Assembly (NCBI GenBank): GCA_009760855.2
Contig: WPIO01000251.1
Coordinates: forward strand, 62,001-126,000
Direction: 5' to 3'
From: Cristatella mucedo
Taxonomy: Eukaryota > Bryozoa > Phylactolaemata > Cristatellidae
DNA: 64,000 nt
In this document: piece after piece, positions 19,845-59,581 of the stretch
Position numbering within the stretch: position 1 is the stretch's first letter
Layout: each line of letters opens with the position of its first letter
Notes under the pieces: generated by a model
What the model was told of the DNA's origin: nothing
Databases searched by the model: none
The model's input: the letters and a program-made list of their open reading frames with translations, nothing else
Made by a program: the position numbers and the translations under genes

Positions 19845-20109
19845 TTAAACATCCTTGGAAAGTTCACAATACATATGTCGGCCACAAAATTCCGCTGAAT
19901 CCTGATGAAGCTGTAGCGATAGATAAGTGCCTTTGCCAGTAACATCATCTTCTTGGTTGAGAAACGCCATTTCATTAGTATTTTCCATCTCAGTTTTATA
20001 ATCTATGATGTCCTCATATAGGTGCTGCTTTTTCAGCTGTATTTCAATATCTCTTCGGTAGATTTTGCTTGAAGAGTCCTTTGCAACTGCTGATTGTCGT
20101 TGCTCACTC
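19845..20109 (-). CDS. Exon 5: cytoplasmic tail with tyrosine motifs and stop codon
   Basis: Starts after a strong acceptor (TTTTTTCAG|GAGTG, phase 2) and ends at TAA 19847-19845. It encodes 87 hydrophilic residues. Tyrosines: Y358, Y372 in H-L-Y-E-D-I, Y378, Y403 in T-Y-L-S-L, and Y421 in M-Y-C-E-L close to the C terminus. Y372, Y403 and Y421 fit Y-x-x-I/L. YEDI resembles the Src-family SH2 ligand YEEI. The spacing (27 and 14 residues between motifs) is not that of a classical ITAM, and the -2 residues (H, G, H) do not match the strict ITIM consensus. They could also act as AP-2 endocytosis signals. Possible polyadenylation hexamers on the same strand are ATTAAA at 19338-19333 and AATAAA at 19131-19126. 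Confidence 0.72.

Positions 20110-59581: not shown

What the first reader, a model, noticed from the sequence alone, without database searches (positions are those of the whole stretch)
19845..59581. A 40-kb gene for a three-Ig-domain receptor hidden among retrotransposons
Seen: five minus-strand segments with consensus splice sites, matching phases and one 428-codon frame give signal peptide, Ig1, Ig2, Ig3, transmembrane helix, Arg cluster and tyrosine-rich tail. Known: this layout is shared by immune and allorecognition receptors of the Ig superfamily, such as vertebrate paired receptors and cnidarian Alr proteins. Inferred: a recognition receptor whose exact family I cannot place. The Ig domains are unusual (no strand-C Trp in domains 1 and 2, N-C-S at each first Cys).
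Basis: partly seen in the sequence, partly recalled or inferred. Interest (0 to 1): 0.85.

Follow-up and report, generated by a model that had tools for sequence, protein, structure and literature searches.

The report
Four-Ig receptor gene, one of many

Summary
The gene is real. The five minus-strand segments and the 428-codon frame are reproduced. A collinear locus on contig C138 keeps the exon order and splice sites, with 72% protein identity and dN/dS 0.34. Beyond the window's right end, on the same contig, lie a fourth Ig-like exon and a separate signal-peptide exon, both kept collinearly in C138. The protein is then 552 aa: SP, four Ig-like domains, TM, 22-nt Arg microexon, tail. Two further loci (C191, C208) show the same layout with one middle Ig found; in the four tails three YxxI/L motifs are invariant. 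Relatives lie at about 22 places on 15 contigs. Mitochondrial code argues against a cnidarian. Best reading: a birth-and-death family of recognition receptors signalling through phosphotyrosine. Expression, ligand and polymorphism are untested. Nearest analogues: Botryllus FcoR, oyster CgIgIT2.

The parts
59239..59517 (-). Exon for Ig1 (C2-like Ig domain), 279 nt, phase 1 at both ends. By projection on the same contig, two upstream exons lie beyond the window: Ig0 at C168:126976-126623 and signal peptide at C168:139664-139583.
   Evidence: Splice sites and frame; 78% aa identical to C138; 16 paralogous exons, AG at the same place in 13
59518..59581 (-).
   Evidence: 39 of 60 identity to C138, gaps, no ATG, stops; 6 of 648 comparable YAG sites in the window read this way
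45746..46024 (-). Exon for Ig2 (C2-like Ig domain), 279 nt, phase 1 at both ends; 50% identical to Ig1
   Evidence: C138 78% aa identical
31785..32162 (-). Exon for the membrane-proximal Ig domain (with strand-C Trp) and the transmembrane helix, 378 nt
   Evidence: profile of 11 paralogous exons matches Ig domains of CEA and contactin-1
31646..31667 (-). 22-nt microexon, reads RRRHLS after the TM helix (Arg cluster)
   Evidence: Splice sites in C168 and C138; counterparts of 22 nt in C191, C208 and one C321 locus
19845..20109 (-). Last coding exon: cytoplasmic tail with YEDI, YLSL and YCEL, stop codon
   Evidence: three YxxI/L motifs invariant in four loci

Best explanation
An intact gene for a type I membrane receptor of 552 aa: signal peptide, a distal Ig-like domain with two extra cysteines (the part most likely to touch a ligand), two C2-like Ig domains, a membrane-proximal Ig domain, TM helix, Arg-rich segment, and a tail with three YxxI/L tyrosines. 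It belongs to a group of at least four close relatives inside a larger, duplicating family. Most likely mechanism: a ligand on another cell or on a microbe clusters the receptor; Src-type kinases phosphorylate the tail (HxYE[DE]I resembles pYEEI, the preferred Src-family SH2 ligand, recalled); SH2 proteins then relay an activating or inhibitory signal in immunity or self-recognition. Shown: gene structure, family, purifying selection, weaker constraint on the distal domain, conserved tail tyrosines. Inferred: expression, splicing, surface location, ligand, phosphorylation, immune role.
For: Frame and splice sites; collinear intact relative, 397 of 552 aligned residues identical, dN/dS 0.34 overall and 0.48 for Ig0 against 0.22, 0.34 and 0.28 for Ig1, Ig2 and Ig3+TM as worked out; fourth Ig-like exon and SP exon upstream, the SP exon region found at these two loci only; Ig0 relatives at C191 and C208; the same 22-nt microexon and the same tail motifs there; about 22 related places; Ig homology of the middle and proximal domains by profile.
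Against: No RNA or protein evidence. Ig0 alone gives no significant match to solved structures and its codon-position test is not significant; the SP exon rests on one conserved candidate and was not looked for in C191 or C208. The tails lack a canonical ITAM, and a strict ITIM occurs in 2 of 4. Profile matches of the middle domain include adhesion proteins Roughest, SYG-2 and nectin-1. The structure models were too poor to use. dN/dS is below 1 in each exon tested, so there is no direct sign of positive selection.
Confidence: 0.55

Rival explanations
1. A family of cell-adhesion or neural-wiring molecules, binding homophilically or in pairs like Roughest, SYG-2 or nectins, with the tail tyrosines as ordinary adaptor sites.
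For: The middle-domain profile finds Roughest (E 1.9e-4), CD276 (3.3e-4), SYG-2 (4.4e-4) and, weakly, nectin-1 (0.036); the proximal profile finds CEA and contactin-1; purifying selection.
Against: Many diverging copies, a distal domain less constrained than the others and a fixed YxxI/L triad fit recognition receptors better; CD276 and Fc-gamma receptors are also among the matches.
Confidence: 0.3
2. One reading: 59581 is a real start and the gene, or a short isoform of it, makes SP-Ig1-Ig2-Ig3 only.
For: The read-through peptide is strongly hydrophobic (core 3.4 against 2.7 for the upstream SP exon), and only 6 of 648 comparable sites in the window read so.
Against: No ATG, broken frame and stops in C138, intron-like divergence; the paralogous exons begin just behind it; a conserved SP exon and Ig0 lie upstream.
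Confidence: 0.1
3. C138 is not a paralogue but a very diverged allele of the same locus, which would make this a hyperpolymorphic locus.
For: Collinear exons and similar spacing; both contigs are short; the assembly holds at least one duplicated contig stretch (C152 and C293).
Against: dS 0.49 is far beyond ordinary allelic distance; no second haplotype or flank comparison was made.
Confidence: 0.1
4. The exons belong to a dead gene or to unrelated genes and the joined frame is chance among retrotransposons.
For: Introns are rich in reverse-transcriptase and endonuclease ORFs; there is no RNA evidence.
Against: Intact frames, conserved splice sites and dN/dS 0.34 over two loci, and the same order of parts at two more.
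Confidence: 0.03

Closest known systems
Botryllus schlosseri fester co-receptors, FcoR (review PMC12065747, passages read)
   Same: Type I TM, 520-610 aa (here 552 and 558), distal variable-type Ig, C2-type Ig domains near the membrane, long tail with YxxI/L/V core motifs; large duplicating family
   Different: FcoR has a sushi domain, none found here; FcoR is ascidian, this mitochondrion is not read by the ascidian code (AGR = Gly, recalled); no paired fester gene looked for; no FcoR sequence was compared
Oyster CgIgIT2 (review PMC11999971, passages read)
   Same: Invertebrate Ig receptor with several Ig domains, TM and tyrosine tail; the review reports microbe binding and ERK signalling
   Different: Five Ig domains and a classical ITAM against four Ig-like domains and separate YxxI/L motifs here; sequences were not compared
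Cnidarian (Hydractinia) Alr proteins (mentioned in PMC12065747, passages; details recalled)
   Same: Ig ectodomains, TM, tyrosine motifs in the tail, gene family
   Different: Other animal lineage by mitochondrial code; no Alr sequence was held for comparison
Vertebrate CEACAM, Fc-receptor and paired-receptor families (profile matches; family features recalled)
   Same: Ig domains plus tail tyrosines; best match of the proximal profile is CEA, E 6.6e-14
   Different: Similarity at the level of single Ig domains only; no orthology shown
Irre-type recognition proteins Roughest and SYG-2
   Same: The middle-domain profile matches their Ig domains at E 1.9e-4 and 4.4e-4
   Different: Weak match confined to one domain type; other domains and tail not compared

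Membership tests
Immunoglobulin superfamily | Ig domains recognisable by homology | tested here: met
   PF00047 above its cut-off for the whole protein in both joined proteins (22.5 and 26 against 21.8 bits); profiles A1 and A2 match solved Ig domains. Single exons alone were below the Pfam cut-offs; Ig0 alone is not significant.
Type I membrane receptor | Signal peptide, one TM helix, cytoplasmic tail | tested here: met
   Sequence of the joined model, hydrophobic stretches by eye and by hydropathy for the SP; no dedicated predictor was run, localisation not tested
Botryllus FcoR | Sushi domain between the V-type and C2-type Ig domains | tested here: not met
   No sushi family among Pfam matches up to E 1; the middle exons profile as Ig
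Botryllus FcoR | Ascidian gene of the fuhc region, paired with a fester gene | tested here: not met
   Only the lineage was tested: AGR sites in COX1 lie opposite Ser, Ala or Thr in 8 of 10, Gly in 1 (counted by eye). Pairing with a fester gene was not tested.
Cnidarian Alr | Cnidarian lineage | tested here: not met
   ATA opposite Met in 9 of 11 aligned COX1 sites, AGR not Arg-like; cnidarian code recalled
Cnidarian Alr | Sequence homology to Alr1 or Alr2 | not testable with these tools
   No Alr sequence was held; no match named Alr in the solved-structure searches
ITIM/ITAM-bearing immune receptors | Canonical ITIM (I/V/L/S-x-Y-x-x-I/V/L) or ITAM in the tail (motifs recalled) | tested here: not met
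   In this gene -2 positions are H, G and H, so no strict ITIM; strict ITIM in C138 and C208 only; YxxI/L pairs too far apart for a classical ITAM
ITIM/ITAM-bearing immune receptors | Core YxxI/L/V tyrosines conserved under selection | tested here: met
   Three motifs invariant in 4 of 4 tails; 6 of the 15 invariant columns among 87 are their Y and I/L
Histocompatibility/allorecognition receptors | High allelic polymorphism segregating with fusion or rejection | not testable with these tools
   Only one assembly is held; no second individual

The most novel reading that the evidence does not exclude
A germline-encoded self/non-self or pathogen recognition system of a bilaterian, perhaps spiralian, animal, not found in print in the listings I saw: a birth-and-death family at about 22 places, with a faster-changing distal domain and a fixed three-tyrosine tail in its best-known branch, convergent in layout with the Botryllus FcoR receptors.
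Probability: 0.3. Interest if true: 0.75.

Novelty: new member of a known kind. Interest (0 to 1): 0.5.

Why it matters
Reviews describe invertebrate Ig receptors that couple to immune-type tyrosine signalling in an ascidian, a cnidarian and an oyster (PMC12065747 and PMC11999971, passages). A complete gene model with exact exons, three close relatives and a conserved tail gives a further case that can be tested directly, and says which exon to sequence across individuals (Ig0) and which to test for SH2 binding (tail).

Tried and rejected
Structure prediction of the Ig3+TM exon alone (mean pLDDT 45) and of Ig2 with Ig1 as a two-row alignment (mean pLDDT 52) was too poor to use; a Foldseek search with the second model gave 0 of 161 matches at E <= 0.001.

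Species identification: GFP and molluscan haemocyanin family searches found nothing, and neither rang in the control genomes, so these are weak negatives. ARAGORN found no tRNA in the mitochondrial pieces, Rfam found four tRNAs at gathering score and an LSU rRNA. The contig length, 21,008, equals that quoted for Chaetoderma nitidulum in PMC4189740 (passages); I treat this as coincidence and could not test it.

Papers: 9 of 10 searches used. I opened PMC12065747, PMC11999971 and PMC4189740, passages only. In the listings I saw no title describing this family in a spiralian; that is not proof that it is unpublished.

Signal-peptide exon: a first scan of four shorter stretches found none. Over 24 kb of C168 the scan listed 4 entries (2 starts), over 19.5 kb of C138 4 entries (4 starts, 2 donors); one pair is homologous.

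Promoter or terminator scans, phage, plasmid and E. coli collections were not used: this is an animal genome.

Full report
Observation. The window is G000:C168:62001-126000 of a 572-Mb, 688-contig assembly. The introns hold reverse-transcriptase and endonuclease ORFs.

Is it a gene? Protein searches of the same genome, exon by exon, find a second locus, C138, with the exons in the same order, strand and similar spacing. Aligned exons differ at codon positions 1/2/3 by 75/56/121 (SP, Ig0, Ig1, Ig2, Ig3+TM and microexon together, p = 1.7e-6; singly below 0.05 for Ig1, Ig2 and Ig3+TM, not for Ig0 or SP). Nei-Gojobori dN/dS values (dN over dS): Ig1 0.116/0.516, Ig2 0.119/0.347, Ig3+TM 0.150/0.545, tail 0.264/0.774; Ig0 0.191/0.402, SP 0.186/0.301 (only 82 nt), whole coding sequence 0.164/0.487. 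The 22-nt microexon is kept with its AG and GT.

The 5' end. The paralogous middle exons begin at this place: of 16, AG stands exactly there in 13, three bases earlier in 2, and not in 1; GT follows after one base at the far end in 16 of 16. I therefore looked upstream. A tblastx comparison of 29 kb of C168 with 24 kb of C138 showed an open conserved exon at C168:126976-126623 (window scale 64976-64623, just past the end), 117 codons, no gaps, 69% identical, phase 1 at both ends. Further up, C168:139664-139583 and C138:239700-239619 both read as signal peptides ending in phase-1 GTAAGT donors; the DNA around this exon matches at these two loci only (2 matches, 84%). The joined proteins, 552 and 558 aa, are both open.

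Family. Ig0 has relatives at C208 and C191, each upstream of a middle Ig and a proximal Ig+TM exon. Their exons keep four cysteines and phase-1 ends. The 22-nt microexon follows in C208 and in one C321 locus (found by script together with C138) and in C191 (outside the script's mismatch limit, seen in the printed sequence and checked); with this pattern it was not found in L037, L039, L040, L041 or the end piece of C48. Tail exons with possible phase-2 acceptors lie downstream in both C191 and C208. Only one middle Ig was found there, so the C168/C138 pair probably duplicated it; Ig1 and Ig2 are 50% identical. SP exons of C191 and C208 were not sought. The wider searches list C168, C138, C191, C208, C48, C207, C152 (2), C293, C507 (3), C51 (3), C95 (2), C321 (2), C655, C687 (one cluster) and C486 (with stops): about 22 places on 15 contigs, by my grouping of neighbouring hits. 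C293 repeats one C152 place over 640 aligned bases. Several rest on one exon, and the tool scores only its best candidates. Neighbouring copies differ by 9 to 19% in DNA (C507, C95, C51, C321), which suggests continuing duplication.

Domains and tail. Profiles of the middle and proximal exons match solved Ig domains. Pfam gives PF00047 above its whole-protein cut-off in both full proteins and no sushi domain. Ig0 alone matches nothing significant, so calling it a V-like Ig is inference from its place, size and cysteines. Across the four tails 15 of 87 ungapped columns are invariant; six of these are the Y and the I/L of three motifs, H[LVI]YE[DE]I, Y[LIM]SL and Y..L. A strict ITIM (definition recalled) occurs in C138 and C208 only.

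Organism. COX1 on contig C688, read against its best solved match (7o37, which I recall as mouse), has ATA opposite Met in 9 of 11 aligned sites, and AGR opposite Ser in 3, Ala in 4 and Thr, Gly and Lys in one each of 10 aligned sites (counted by eye). This fits the invertebrate code and argues against the cnidarian and ascidian codes (codes recalled). In transcription order the minus strand has what I recognise by eye as nad1, nad6, cob, nad4L, nad4 and nad5 (only COX1 was named by a tool), a block I recall from chitons and phoronids. PMC4189740 (passages) says the molluscan consensus order is few steps from those of phoronids, brachiopods, nemerteans and entoprocts. 'Spiralian' is thus a guess; the species is unknown.

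Mechanism and standing. The anatomy says type I receptor with a phosphotyrosine tail. Duplication, a less constrained distal domain and fixed tail motifs favour recognition with conserved signalling, as the Botryllus review describes for FcoR. Adhesion in development remains possible. By architecture it may work like FcoR or CgIgIT2; it is not shown to be a member of either family, and for FcoR two defining features were tested and not met.

Noticed in passing
window 56091-58572 (+); window 22428-23702 and 24028-25044 (-): LINE-type endonuclease and reverse-transcriptase ORFs in the introns (Pfam matches for 56091-56933, 57316-58572 and 22428-23702; 24028-25044 by eye).
   Followed up: partly
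window 55334-55486: Perfect tetranucleotide array, 38 copies of GCGT.
   Followed up: no
L022 2431-4225; L023 795-5028 (G000:C688): The 21-kb mitochondrial contig carries two direct copies of about 2.1 kb and a third, inverted copy of about 1.8 kb, 100% identical: either real or an assembly artefact.
   Followed up: no
G000 C166, C83, C549, C299 (L020, L021): COX1 fragments in large contigs, some with TAA or TAG, likely nuclear mitochondrial copies.
   Followed up: no
L028 190-468 (G000:C507:2703570-2704230): One of the three C507 tandem relatives has Tyr in place of the first Ig cysteine (VITYSS against VITCSS), a lost disulphide or a decaying copy.
   Followed up: no
L032 and L033 (C152:208680-209320, C293:24310-24950): Two contigs agree in 640 of 640 aligned bases (2 gap columns), so the assembly holds duplicated or haplotig stretches and family counts are affected.
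   Followed up: partly
C168:149962-151000 and C138:240544-241974 (L043, L045): A stretch upstream of both signal-peptide exons is 82-88% identical between the two contigs, more than the introns; not identified.
   Followed up: no
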